A stretch of 64,000 bases of DNA, from the NCBI RefSeq assembly GCF_000174355.1, contig NZ_ACIS01000011.1, positions 1-64,000 on the forward strand. The letters run 5' to 3'. The notes under the pieces were generated by a model. It did no database searches. It had not been told where the DNA came from and saw only the letters and a program-made list of their open reading frames with translations. This document shows positions 1,036-6,440 of the stretch, in pieces (the stretch's first letter is position 1; each line of letters begins with the position of its first letter). This DNA comes from Pseudogulbenkiania ferrooxidans 2002. GTDB taxonomy: Bacteria > Pseudomonadota > Gammaproteobacteria > Burkholderiales > Chromobacteriaceae. The translations under genes were made by a program, and so were the position numbers.

Positions 1036-1057
1036 AAAAAAGCCCCCGAAGGGGCTT
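1036..1057 (-). terminator. Rho-independent terminator of the quaternary-amine binding-protein gene
   Basis: Read on the minus strand, AGCCCC-TTC-GGGGGCT is followed by a run of six T. It sits about 30 bases past the stop of the gene at 1090-1938. An almost identical terminator occurs at 6324-6342 beside a decayed copy of the same gene end. Confidence 0.9.
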
Positions 1058-1089
1058 CAAGAGAGAATATTTACCACCGGGAACGAAGC

Positions 1090-1938
1090 TTACAGCCAGC
1101 CCGCCACGCGCTTGCCGTTGGCGCCAACCCACTTCTCGGCCGCTGCCGCCGGCTTGGCGCCGTTCTCGACCTCCAGCATCACCGCGCCGATTTCCTCCGG
1201 CTTCCAGGAGAATTTCTTCAGGAAGCTCACCACTTGCGGTGCCTTGGCGTTCAGGCCGGGGTTGATCACGGTGTCGACGTGTTCTTCCTCGCCGTACACC
1301 TTCTTCGGGTCCTCCAGGAAGCGCAGCTTCCACTTGGCGAACATCCAGTGCGGAATCCAACCCGTCACCGCGATCGGCTTCTTGGCGTTGATCGAGCGCG
1401 CCAGTTCGGATGCCATGCCCGGACCGGAGCTCGGCATCAGCTTGTAGTCGAGGTTGTAGTCCTTGATCGCCAGTTCGGTCTTCTTCATCACGCCGGCGCC
1501 GGCGTCGATGCCGACGATGCGGCCCTGGAAGGCGTCCTTGTACTTGTTGAGGTCGGCCAGGCTCTTGGCCGGCACGTACTCGGGCACGATCAGGCCGATC
1601 TTGGCACCGGGGTAGTTGGGCCCGAGATCGGTGACCTTGTCCTTGAGCTGCTGGTAATAGTCACCATGCGTCACCGGCAGCCAGGCCGACAGCGTGGCGT
1701 CGAGATCGCCGCGCGCGACCCCCTGCCACATGATGCCGGCGGCGACCGGTACCAGCTCCACCGGGTAGCCCAGCTTGGTCTTGATGATGGCAGCGGCGAC
1801 CTGCGTGGTGGCCACGCTGTCGGCCCAGCCTTCGACGTAGCCGATCTTGATCAGCGGTTTGTCGGCCGCCCAACTGGCGCTGGAACAGACCAGGCCGATG
1901 GCGGCCAGCAGCTTGACACTGTTGCGAACTTGCTTCAT
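1090..1938 (-). CDS. Periplasmic choline/glycine betaine-type ABC substrate-binding protein
   Basis: 282 aa protein of the OpuAC/ProX/ChoX binding-protein family. A signal peptide spans about residues 1-24 (cleavage near SSASWA-AD). The mature part begins IKIGYVEGWADSVATT and has the Trp-rich features used by this family to cage trimethylammonium groups (MWQG, SAWLPVTHGDYY, GWIPHWMFAKW). The start at 1938 has a good GGAG site. It follows the phosphorylcholine phosphatase by 88 bases on the same strand, and that gap contains a GCGGG/CCCGC hairpin. No permease or ATPase gene is adjacent, so it must pair with a transporter encoded elsewhere. Choline versus betaine specificity cannot be settled from sequence; the phosphatase neighbour favours choline. 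Confidence 0.82.
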   Translation of the reverse strand: MKQVRNSVKLLAAIGLVCSSASWAADKPLIKIGYVEGWADSVATTQVAAAIIKTKLGYPVELVPVAAGIMWQGVARGDLDATLSAWLPVTHGDYYQQLKDKVTDLGPNYPGAKIGLIVPEYVPAKSLADLNKYKDAFQGRIVGIDAGAGVMKKTELAIKDYNLDYKLMPSSGPGMASELARSINAKKPIAVTGWIPHWMFAKWKLRFLEDPKKVYGEEEHVDTVINPGLNAKAPQVVSFLKKFSWKPEEIGAVMLEVENGAKPAAAAEKWVGANGKRVAGWL

Positions 1939-2026
1939 GCCAACTCCTCTACATGGATAAAAGATGGGAATAGTCCCGTTCTGCTGCTTTACGTGCTACT
2001 GCGGGTGGTCCCGCTTATCGTTTGAT

Positions 2027-3082
2027 TTATTGGATGTCTTCCGGCTTCACCACCAGCCAGTTCTTGTCGGCGGTGACCGTCTGGCCCAGCGAAGCTTGGC
2101 GCTTGGCCGATTCTTCCCACCACGACTGCATGGCTGGCATGTACTTGGCCTTGCGATTGACCCATACCCGTACCCCGCCCTTCTCGACGTCGGTACTGTT
2201 GAGCAGCATGTAGCCGTCGGAGATCGGGGTGTCGCCCCCCACCAGCACCGGCTTCTTCCACTGGTCGATCCAGCCGACGATGGAGCCCAGTTTGCCTTCG
2301 TACCAGGTCATCGGGTTCATCAGGTAGGGGGTCAGCTCCAGGTCGAGGTTGCGCGCCGGGTCGTACTTGCCCTTCTTGATCTGCAGCCGCGAGCTGGTCA
2401 GCTCGCCGCTCGTCCGATCCTTGAGCAGCATGTTGACGCCGATGACGTTCTGCGGCTTGACGTTGTAGCCGTACTTGGGGTCGCTGACGACCATGCGTGC
2501 CAGCTCCTCGCCGGCGGCGGACATGACGTAGACCTCGATGCCGTTTTCCTGCAGGCGGTTGTAGAGCTCCTGCATACCAGTGTAGGGACGCGGGCGGTTA
2601 ACCGTGCCCTCCACCACTTTGTCGCCGCTGTAGTACTTGATCGGGATCGGCTTGTCGTAGGCCATCAGCTCGTCGACGTAGCCCTTGAGCTGTTTCAGCG
2701 TGAAGCCGGAGAACACCTGTGCCACCCACGGATAGCACACTAGGTCGTCGACCTCGCACAGCCGGTAGTAATAGCTGTTCAGGCTCTCCTTGAAGCCAGG
2801 CGTGTCCTTGAACGGCAGCAATTTGAGCGAGGGATCGAGTTTGTCGCGCGTCAGCACGCCCTTCATCTCGAGGAACGGCAGCAAGGCCTCTTCCAGGTCG
2901 TAGCGGTAACTGGTGTTGTCCATGTCGAACACCGCGTAGGCGCCCTTGTGGGCGTTGGCGGCGATCATGGTATTCAGCTTCTGGGCGACGTCGCCCGGCC
3001 AGTGCTTGAGCTCGGTGGCCTGGGCTCCGGCCGTGGCCAGCAGCAACGACAACGACAATGCAACGCGTTTCAAACGACTCAT
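2027..3082 (-). CDS. pchP: Secreted HAD-family phosphorylcholine phosphatase
   Basis: 351 aa HAD-superfamily hydrolase with a signal peptide (about 1-22, cleavage near AGAQA-TE). Motif I is VFDMDNTS at 51-58, giving the nucleophile D53 and acid D55. Motif II is the Ser in YVMSAAGEE, and the acidic motif near the end is GGDTPISDG. This layout matches the Pseudomonas PchP type, which in the periplasm removes phosphate from phosphorylcholine freed from lipids and so yields choline. The ribosome site CAGGAG lies 8 bases before ATG 3082. The gene is followed by the quaternary-amine binding protein, so the pair would make and capture choline. Substrate is inferred from family and context; another phosphomonoester is possible. 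Confidence 0.75.
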
Positions 3083-3116
3083 CCGCTCACTCCTGTGGGT
3101 TGGACCGACACTGATG

Positions 3117-3151
3117 AAACAAAAAAACCCGGCATGCCTCGCACGCCGGGT
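3117..3151 (-). terminator. Rho-independent terminator behind a decayed gene end
   Basis: Minus strand: ACCCGGCGTG-cgagg-CATGCCGGGT followed by seven T. The only minus-strand coding trace upstream of it is the dipeptidase remnant at 3162-3390, so the terminator has outlived its gene. It now insulates pchP from transcription arriving from the right. Confidence 0.85.
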
Positions 3152-3161
3152 AACTCACGAC

Positions 3162-5205: not shown

Positions 5206-5230
5206 TCTTCTTGCGTGACCGGAACCGGGG

Positions 5231-6199
5231 TCAGGCGCCCCACACCTCGCCGAACACGCGCAGCCAGTTCTCGCCCAGCACCTTCTGAATCTTGCGCTCG
5301 CCCCAGCCGGCCTTCTCCATCGCCACGGTCAGGTTCGGCGTCTCGCCGATGGTGCGGATGCCTTCCGGATTCAAAATGGTCCCGAAGTTGGTCAGGCGGC
5401 GGTAACGGCCCTTGTCGTGGGTGATCCAGTCGAAGAAGCCCTTGTCGTAGCCCTGGGTGAAGTCGGTACCGAAGCCGACGCAGTCCTCGCCCACCAGGTT
5501 GATGATGTAATCCATCGCCTCGACGTAGTCGTCCACCGTGGCTTCGATGCCGCGCTTGAGGAACGGCGGGAACATGGTAACGCCGATGAAGCCGCCGTGG
5601 TCGGCGATGAACTTGAGCTCCTCGTCGCTCTTGTTGCGCGGGTGCTCCTTGAGGCCCGAAGGCAGGCAGTGCGAGTAGGTCACCGGCTTCTTGGATTCCA
5701 GGATCGCCTCTTTCGAGGTGTGGCTGCCGACGTGCGACAGGTCCACCATGATGCCGACGCGGTTCATCTCGGCGATGACCTCGCGACCGAAGCCGGACAG
5801 GCCGCCGTCGCGCTCGTAGCAGCCGGTGCCGATCAGGTTCTGCGTGTTGTAGCACAACTGCACCACGCGCACGCCCATGTCGGCGAACGCCTCGATGTAG
5901 CCGATGTTGTCCTCGAAGGCGTGGGCGTTCTGGAAGCCCAGGATGATGCCGGTCTTGCCGTCGCGCTTGGCCTGGCGGATGTCCTCGGTGGTGCGTACCA
6001 GCGACAGGATGTCGCTGTAGTCGCGAATCTTCTGCTTCATCTCGGCGATGTTGTCGACGGTATCGGTGAAGCCCTCCCACACCGACACGGTACAGTTGGC
6101 GGCGGTGAGGCCACCCTTGCGCATGTCGTCGAACACCGAGCGTTCCCACTTGGCGATGATCAGGCCGTCGATGACGATGCTGTCGTTATGCAGTGACAT
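5231..6199 (-). CDS. Membrane dipeptidase family zinc hydrolase (peptidase family M19)
   Basis: 322 aa protein of the renal-dipeptidase (M19) family with a TIM-barrel metal site. Seen are the opening SIVIDGLIIAKWERSVFDDM, GIILGFQNAHAFEDNIGYIE, MVDLSHVGSHTSKEAI, PVTYSHC and GFGTDFTQGYD, which hold family metal and substrate positions. M19 enzymes of this type are common beside betaine, dimethylglycine and sarcosine genes in proteobacteria, where their exact substrate is unknown. The long open frame continues upstream, but ATG 6199 follows GAGGAG and gives the family length. No signal peptide is seen, so it is probably cytoplasmic. It lies on the same strand as soxBDAG, separated by a relic with a terminator, so it likely has its own promoter. 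Confidence 0.85.
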   Translation of the reverse strand: MSLHNDSIVIDGLIIAKWERSVFDDMRKGGLTAANCTVSVWEGFTDTVDNIAEMKQKIRDYSDILSLVRTTEDIRQAKRDGKTGIILGFQNAHAFEDNIGYIEAFADMGVRVVQLCYNTQNLIGTGCYERDGGLSGFGREVIAEMNRVGIMVDLSHVGSHTSKEAILESKKPVTYSHCLPSGLKEHPRNKSDEELKFIADHGGFIGVTMFPPFLKRGIEATVDDYVEAMDYIINLVGEDCVGFGTDFTQGYDKGFFDWITHDKGRYRRLTNFGTILNPEGIRTIGETPNLTVAMEKAGWGERKIQKVLGENWLRVFGEVWGA

Positions 6200-6252
6200 T
6201 TTTTCTCCTCGCGGGCACCTCACCCGCCTTGAGAAATGGTGCACGAGGCGGT

Positions 6253-6264
6253 TTCGGCCAACCT
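6253..6264 (+). repeat. Dispersed intergenic 12-mer TTCGGCCAACCT, copy 1
   Basis: Exact copy of a 12-mer found five times in the window, always between genes. This copy lies between the dipeptidase and soxG. Confidence 0.6.
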
Positions 6265-6323
6265 CGGCAGCAGCGACCGGTTTTTGCCGCAGACCGACAT
6301 GGCATGGCGCGACAAGAGAAATG

Positions 6324-6342
6324 AAAAAGCCCCCGAAGGGGC
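6324..6342 (-). terminator. Rho-independent terminator left by a decayed binding-protein gene, now downstream of soxG
   Basis: Minus strand: GCCCC-TTC-GGGGGC followed by five T. The sequence is nearly identical to the terminator at 1036-1057. It is the first terminator after soxG, so it probably ends the sox transcript today. Confidence 0.85.
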
Positions 6343-6356
6343 ATGAAGGGATGGTA

Positions 6357-6440
6357 ATAACCACCGGGAACAAAACGTTACGGCCAGCCGGCCACTTCTC
6401 GGCCGTCATCACCAGCTTAGAGTCGCCGACAAAACCCAGT
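6357..6440 (-). pseudogene. Decayed 3' end of a second quaternary-amine binding-protein gene
   Basis: The minus strand reads GGCCGAGAAGTGG, then GGCTGG, then TTCCCGGTGGT and the terminator. This is the same order as the end of the intact gene at 1090-1938 (translated AAEKW ... AGWL, stop, leader to terminator). About 25 bases that encode VGANGKRV in the intact gene are missing, and the original stop is lost. Only the last few dozen codons can be recognised. The low but real upstream resemblance (V-D-K-AEKW pattern) suggests a paralogue, not a very recent copy. Confidence 0.7.

What the first reader, a model, noticed from the sequence alone, without database searches (positions are those of the whole stretch)
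1036..6440. Reciprocal relics suggest an old duplication of the choline block with complementary gene loss
Seen: along the minus strand the order is soxBDAG, binding-protein relic with terminator (6324-6440), intact dipeptidase (5231-6199), dipeptidase relic with terminator (3117-3390), pchP, intact binding protein (1090-1938). Each half keeps what the other lost. The binding-protein terminators are nearly identical (GCCCC-TTC-GGGGGC plus T-run). Inference: a segment was duplicated and each copy lost one gene, leaving terminators as fossils.
Basis: partly seen in the sequence, partly recalled or inferred. Interest (0 to 1): 0.58.

Follow-up and report, generated by a model that had tools for sequence, protein, structure and literature searches.

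The report
Copied promoter left gene-end scars
Two scraps of broken genes in a bacterial choline-breakdown region are real leftovers of copied DNA, and one of them appears to have brought along a spare copy of a neighbouring operon's switch that now sits in front of an enzyme gene, a known kind of gene rewiring that seems to have happened again in a related genus.

Summary
Observation partly confirmed. Both relics match the named genes beyond shuffled controls, but each is only a gene's last part (87 nt in the best copy, 98 nt) plus its terminator. The rest of the claimed dipeptidase relic (3261-3400) scores like shuffled DNA, and 6413-6531 is a dispersed repeat. Outgroup genomes of the family keep soxG-DIP (16 of 16), then SBP (15), then DUF5943 (13). 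In all three Pseudogulbenkiania genomes held, a copy of 'SBP-side terminator, spacer and dgc promoter region P' sits between soxG and DIP; in G001 it still carries the SBP end (229/280 identical, z 34.5). The dip scar holds the DIP-pchP terminator of Vogesella. The order sbp*-DIP-dip*-pchP-SBP does not fit a two-copy duplication with complementary loss; a third copy or a second event is needed. Best reading: a duplication in the Pseudogulbenkiania stem put the dgc promoter in front of DIP (promoter capture), redundant DNA was lost, and another rearrangement inserted comEA-prx. A parallel exists in genus g2: two genomes carry P between soxG and a ProP-like transporter gene that two relatives hold without P. 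Expression and regulator binding are untested.

The parts
6538..7212 (-). soxG, last gene of soxBDAG
   Evidence: Pfam SoxG; TIGR01375 below its cut-off
6413..6531 (-). dispersed ~119-bp repeat with imperfect terminal inverted repeats between soxG and the relic; not SBP-derived
   Evidence: 18, 9 and 48 matches counted in G000, G001, G002, fragments counted separately; alignment
6378..6412 (-). sbp* coding scar: C-terminal codons and stop of a second binding-protein copy, with an internal deletion
   Evidence: aligned to about 6406, further by eye; fuller copy (87 nt) in G001
6329..6342 (-). sbp* intrinsic terminator, present in all 3 genus members
6231..6309 (-). P: duplicate of the region upstream of DUF5943-dgcAB, now upstream of DIP; motif TGTCGGN5GGCAANNACCKGTCG at 6274-6299
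5231..6199 (-). DIP, intact M19 dipeptidase-family gene; the only match in this genome
   Evidence: PF01244; 1 match in G000
5165..5210 (-). 3' hairpin of the intact DIP, unlike the DIP-pchP terminator of Vogesella
   Evidence: sequence; flank vs Vogesella DIP-pchP interval no better than shuffled (354 of 1000)
4478..4996 (+). ComEA-like helix-hairpin-helix protein gene, inserted block
   Evidence: PF12836; in none of the 16 outgroup regions
3531..4184 (+). 1-Cys-type peroxiredoxin gene, inserted block
   Evidence: PF00578, PF10417; in none of the 16 outgroup regions
3397..3400 (.). rearrangement breakpoint between G000/G002 and G001
   Evidence: prx-side homology starts at 3397, dip*-side homology ends at 3400
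3162..3259 (-). dip* scar: last 98 nt of a second dipeptidase copy
3127..3151 (-). dip* terminator, homologous to the DIP-pchP terminator of Vogesella
2027..3082 (-). pchP, phosphorylcholine phosphatase
   Evidence: PDB 4as2 match
1090..1938 (-). SBP, intact choline/betaine-type binding protein
   Evidence: PF04069
1043..1063 (-). SBP terminator, parent of the sbp* terminator

Best explanation
Promoter capture by duplication. In the stem of Pseudogulbenkiania, DNA from the choline/betaine block (DIP-pchP-SBP-terminator-P, P being the region upstream of DUF5943-dgcAB) was duplicated in tandem, so that a P copy came to lie directly upstream of a DIP copy. Redundant upstream DNA (DIP, pchP and all but about the last 87 nt of SBP) was then deleted up to the soxG stop. 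What remains is soxG - SBP end - terminator - P - DIP: the terminator would cut DIP off from sox transcription and P would give DIP the dgc control. SHOWN: homology and contiguity of the copy, its absence in the outgroup regions, its rough age, persistence of terminator and P while the sbp* codons decay. INFERRED: the tandem route, that P is a promoter read by a GbdR-type regulator, any fitness gain. A second step (an extra DIP copy, or a short duplication of the DIP 3' end, with insertion of the comEA-prx block) left dip* and the old DIP terminator in front of pchP.
For: G001 soxG-DIP interval vs its own SBP-DUF5943 interval: 229/280 identical, 0 of 1000 shuffles, z 34.5, through SBP codons, terminator, spacer and P; G000 soxG-DIP interval vs its DUF5943 upstream region 137/170, 0 of 1000. 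The P motif lies upstream of DUF5943 in 17 of 19 genomes with that gene by exact pattern, with one-mismatch forms seen in the other two, G001 and G012; upstream of DIP in 3 of 3 Pseudogulbenkiania; between soxG and DIP in 2 of 16 outgroup regions, both before an MFS gene. P_DIP vs P_DUF 0.85-0.95 in the genus, 0.73-0.78 to Vogesella; sbp*_G001 0.81-0.87 to genus SBPs, 0.68-0.76 to Vogesella. sbp* codons: long in G001, short in G000, gone in G002, while terminator and P persist. dip* plus terminator matches the Vogesella DIP 3' end plus terminator (0 of 1000, for G000 and for G001), the intact G000 DIP flank does not (354 of 1000). In g2, G005 and G010 carry a P copy between soxG and an MFS gene (0 of 1000 each); G007 and G008 show the same gene start without the motif (G005 protein ProP-like).
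Against: No intact tandem copy was seen, so the tandem step cannot be told from a direct copy of about 290 bp. dip* needs a further event, and its age rests on G001 alone: in G000 it is no nearer its own DIP (0.65) than Vogesella G059 (0.68). P_DUF of G000 is nearer P_DIP of G000 (0.95) than P_DUF of G001 (0.91), so the two sets are not cleanly separated. P may stay similar through function alone, though that does not explain the attached SBP end and terminator. Only three genomes of the genus are held, one an 84% complete MAG. No sigma-70 consensus promoter was found in 1000-6600. No expression data; the GbdR assignment is recalled.
Confidence: 0.62

Rival explanations
1. Two independent short duplications (about 290 bp of SBP-3'/terminator/P and about 120 bp of DIP-3'/terminator) arose at rearrangement junctions; no whole block was ever doubled.
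For: Both relics are short 3' ends of similar length, 87 nt (G001 sbp*) and 98 nt (dip*); DIP homology of the relic ends near DIP nt 872-888; in g2 a P copy sits after soxG with no gene scar noticed.
Against: A direct 290-bp copy over several kb needs template switching or insertion; no element or target duplication was noticed at its ends, though none was searched for systematically. Tandem duplication followed by deletion is the commoner route (general knowledge, not a call).
Confidence: 0.25
2. Three-copy amplification of DIP-pchP-SBP-P, resolved by two deletions: copy 1 leaves sbp*-P, copy 2 leaves DIP, copy 3 leaves dip*-pchP-SBP. This is the first reader's idea with one more copy; it is a version of the best explanation for dip*, not exclusive of it.
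For: Explains every piece by losses plus one insertion (comEA-prx). In G001 the relics are about equally far from their own parents: sbp* 0.81, P 0.85, dip* 0.81. The intact DIP of G001 still resembles dip* for about 25 nt past the stop.
Against: No trace of the other lost genes; more events than needed for sbp*-P alone; the G000 dip* does not group with its own DIP.
Confidence: 0.25
3. One reading: one duplication into two halves, each losing one gene.
For: Relics of both genes exist.
Against: Relic order conflicts with the family order DIP-(pchP)-SBP; the relics are not decayed whole genes.
Confidence: 0.08
4. The intact DIP with its upstream piece came by transfer from a lineage with SBP-DIP order, as in Leptothrix and Sphaerotilus loci.
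For: SBP precedes DIP on the same strand without another queried gene between in 3 of 79 loci (L017, L018, L024).
Against: Among the sequences compared, DIP is nearest Vogesella outside the genus, and sbp*_G001 and P are nearest the genus' own copies; DIP falls off across genera in the same rank order as its neighbours. No gene tree was built.
Confidence: 0.05

Closest known systems
Promoter capture by tandem duplication or deletion (citrate transporter in the E. coli long-term experiment; histidine genes in Salmonella), as named in PMC11111574 (passages read)
   Same: A promoter copy ends up in front of a gene it did not serve, here with the donor promoter kept.
   Different: Natural and old, the tandem copies are gone, and the captured region belongs to the same catabolic pathway; activity is not shown.
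GbdR regulon of Pseudomonas aeruginosa (choline/betaine catabolism; PMC5806209 passages read)
   Same: A shared upstream motif at choline/betaine-pathway operons (regulon content beyond the passages is recalled).
   Different: No regulator, binding or consensus was tested here; the regulon paper (Hampel 2014, PMC3911141) is not held.
Betaproteobacterial sox-DIP-DUF5943-dgcAB blocks
   Same: Gene content and core order.
   Different: Among the 19 family genomes with DIP, only the 3 Pseudogulbenkiania have P directly before DIP and comEA after it.

Membership tests
Promoter capture by duplication | second copy of a promoter region upstream of a new gene, donor copy retained | tested here: met
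   P upstream of DIP and of DUF5943 in 3 of 3 genus members; that P is a promoter is inferred
Promoter capture by duplication | junction absent in relatives | tested here: met
   exact motif directly before DIP in 0 of 16 outgroup regions; in 2 it stands before an MFS gene after soxG
Promoter capture by duplication | tandem repeat of the whole unit | tested here: not met
   only 3' scars in the 3 genus genomes
Promoter capture by duplication | captured gene follows the new promoter | not testable with these tools
   needs RNA data
Block duplication with complementary gene loss | relic order compatible with two copies of the ancestral order | tested here: not met
   sbp*-DIP-dip*-SBP vs DIP-(pchP)-SBP
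Block duplication with complementary gene loss | relics are remains of whole genes | tested here: not met
   only the last 87-98 nt align
Block duplication with complementary gene loss | relics homologous to the intact genes | tested here: met
GbdR-type operator | conserved motif upstream of pathway operons | tested here: met
   17 of 19 DUF5943 upstream regions by exact pattern
GbdR-type operator | match to the published GbdR consensus, or binding | not tested
   consensus paper not held

The most novel reading that the evidence does not exclude
The boundary after soxG is a recurrent site of regulatory rewiring: the dgc promoter region has been copied there at least twice independently (Pseudogulbenkiania: before the dipeptidase gene; genus g2: before a ProP-like transporter gene), each time splitting the next gene from sox control and giving it dgc control.
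Probability: 0.45. Interest if true: 0.5.

Novelty: new member of a known kind. Interest (0 to 1): 0.36.

Why it matters
It turns an apparent pair of dead gene scraps into a roughly datable record of how an operon was split and rewired, with a parallel case in another genus of the family. It also suggests that terminators and promoters can outlive the gene ends that carried them, so such scars could be used to find past promoter captures in other genomes.

Tried and rejected
Rejected: dipeptidase homology of 3241-3420 or 3261-3400 (the matching G001 stretch, 190 of 1000 shuffles as good). A family-wide search with 3245-3400 gave, outside the genus, only 25-39 bp matches in G015, G023 and G025 of genus group g3; the one in G023 was looked at and led nowhere. 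Rejected: similarity between the intervals 3083-3530 and 6200-6537 (395 of 500 shuffles as good) and between 6200-6330 and 3060-3170 (427 of 500). Rejected: 6441-6530 as binding-protein relic (428 of 500). Rfam gave no match at gathering scores in window 1-20000. The sigma-70 scan found no promoter in 1000-6600, which neither supports nor excludes P. Papers: Pseudogulbenkiania + choline, 1 paper, listing only; reciprocal loss, tandem duplication, operon (listing only); GbdR (listings); promoter capture + citT (listing). Passages read: PMC5806209, PMC12134079, PMC12323605, PMC11111574; none of the passages gave a full GbdR consensus. Open: whether the surroundings of dip* and prx in G001 or in G000/G002 are ancestral.
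Full report
Setting. The window is the start of contig C10 of an assembly (G000) whose genus holds two more genomes, G001 and G002. G001 shares a contig with a record titled Pseudogulbenkiania sp.. On the minus strand the order is soxBDAG, relic, dipeptidase (DIP); then comEA and peroxiredoxin genes on the plus strand; then relic, pchP, binding protein (SBP). Gene identities.

The binding-protein relic is real. Window 6310-6530 against SBP scores 332 with a shuffle maximum of 232 (0 of 500); without the terminator it is 214 against a maximum of 207 (0 of 500). 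Its coding part is about 6378-6412; 6413-6531 is a dispersed repeat, counted 18, 9 and 48 times in G000, G001 and G002 with fragments counted separately. G001 keeps the relic best: 87 nt of SBP before and including the stop. In G002 the codons are gone and a different repeat with inverted ends sits there.

In G001 the soxG-DIP interval is a copy of the SBP-DUF5943 interval of the same genome: 229 of 280 positions identical, 0 of 1000 shuffles, z 34.5, running from SBP codons through terminator and spacer into P, the region upstream of DUF5943-dgcAB. P is also upstream of DUF5943 in G000 and G002 and, at 73-78%, in Vogesella. The motif GTCGGN5GGCAANNACCNGTCG occurs upstream of DUF5943 in 17 of the 19 genomes that have the gene; G001 and G012 have it with one mismatch by eye. 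In the window a fuller form of the motif occurs once, without mismatch, at 6274-6299, where 0.04 matches with up to 3 mismatches are expected. In G000 and G002 a VgrG island separates SBP from P-DUF5943 (about 7 kb on G002 C29), which hides the parent of P from a reader of the window. In G000 the two parts are on different contigs; that C19 joins C10 is an inference.

The dipeptidase relic is real but short. The whole claimed stretch (3150-3420) beats 499 of 500 shuffles, but only 3162-3259 aligns, to the last 98 nt of DIP (64/98, 0 of 1000); nhmmer with 18 of the 19 family DIP genes (G018 left out; six cut before the stop) finds nothing further upstream, and 3261-3400 is at shuffle level (373 of 1000). 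In G001 the last 78 nt are 81-85% identical to genus DIPs and 76% to Vogesella G059. In G000 the relic is far more decayed: 65% to its own DIP and 68% to G059, so it gives no date (G054 was cut one codon short there, no fair figure). The relic with its terminator matches the Vogesella DIP end with the DIP-pchP terminator (0 of 1000 for G000 and for G001), while the 3' flank of the intact G000 DIP does not (354 of 1000). In G001 the first 25 nt or so past the intact DIP's stop still resemble the dip* flank. So dip* marks the ancestral DIP position next to pchP, and the intact DIP has new neighbours on both sides.

Comparison with relatives. DIP is found in 19 of 61 family genomes. In 16 of 16 outgroup regions soxG is followed by DIP, in four with a 1.4-1.7 kb gap that starts an MFS gene; SBP follows in 15 of 16, and pchP lies between DIP and SBP in 4 (MFS gene). 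DUF5943 follows SBP within about 2.2 kb in 13 of 16; in Paludibacterium it follows DIP, and in the two Vogesella genomes it is elsewhere. In 79 wider loci, the best hits of a capped list of close relatives, DUF5943 is the next queried gene after DIP in 70 (matches under 40% coverage were dropped).

Age. P upstream of DIP and of DUF5943 differ by 5-15% within the genus and by 22-27% from Vogesella; sbp* of G001 is 81-87% identical to genus SBPs, 68-76% to Vogesella. This puts the sbp*-P duplication in the Pseudogulbenkiania stem. Against a clean picture: P_DUF of G000 is nearer to P_DIP of G000 than to P_DUF of G001 (0.95 vs 0.91), only G001's sbp* is long enough to compare, and P may be held similar by function; the SBP codons should not be.

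Parallel case. In g2 genomes G005 and G010 a copy of the DUF5943 upstream region sits between soxG and an MFS gene (191/252 and 171/217 aligned positions identical, 0 of 1000 shuffles each). The G005 protein matches TIGR00883 and the ProP model PRK10642, both below cut-off. G007 and G008 show the same gene start by eye, without the motif. No other outgroup region has the exact motif on the soxG side. That the two genera acquired their copies independently is inferred from the different downstream gene and the motif-free relatives.

Mechanism. Tandem duplication of the block with its join between P and DIP would put DIP under P at once; deletion of the redundant upstream copy would leave soxG-sbp*-terminator-P-DIP. 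Persistence of terminator and P with loss of the sbp* codons in the three genomes fits a working promoter and insulator, but no expression was measured, and the link to GbdR is recalled pathway knowledge plus passages of a Pseudomonas paper. dip* needs a second step, either a third copy or a short duplication, tied to the insertion of comEA-prx. G001 has other neighbours at both dip* and prx, with a breakpoint at window 3397-3400, so the order of events around that insertion is open.

Verdict. The relics are genuine and a duplication occurred; the reciprocal-loss story in its stated form does not fit; promoter capture is the best reading. It is a new instance of a known process, of moderate interest because of the parallel in a second genus. 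On checking, I lowered the three-copy rival from 0.30 to 0.25, because the G000 dip* gives no support for its date.

Noticed in passing
window 6413-6531; many places in G000, G001, G002: A dispersed ~119-bp repeat with imperfect terminal inverted repeats (GAGTCGC..ACAAAACCC), also in the pchP-SBP gaps of G001 and G002; weaker relatives in Vogesella G059 and in G018 of group g3.
   Followed up: partly
L135 about 8845-8992 (G002 soxG-DIP gap): A different small repeat with inverted ends (AGAACC..GTTCACGATC) sits in the same gap in G002, suggesting an insertion-prone spot.
   Followed up: no
window 1-572; L175 15416-19938; L176 13144-15001: A VgrG island with LysM/M23 (G000) or GH19 (G002) candidate cargo lies between SBP and the dgc operon in G000 and G002; in G001 SBP and DUF5943 are only about 250 bp apart.
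   Followed up: partly
L147 8443-8771; L148 8658-8995: Copy of the dgc upstream region between soxG and a ProP-like MFS gene in two g2 genomes.
   Followed up: yes
L137 219-1852: In G001 the dip*-pchP-SBP-dgc piece is preceded by a triosephosphate isomerase gene and a GntR/FCD regulator; a match to the regulator gene lies elsewhere in G000 (C10 81 kb) and G002 (C38).
   Followed up: partly
L153 7706-8670: DIP of G018 is split into two overlapping matches near its start, perhaps a frameshift.
   Followed up: no
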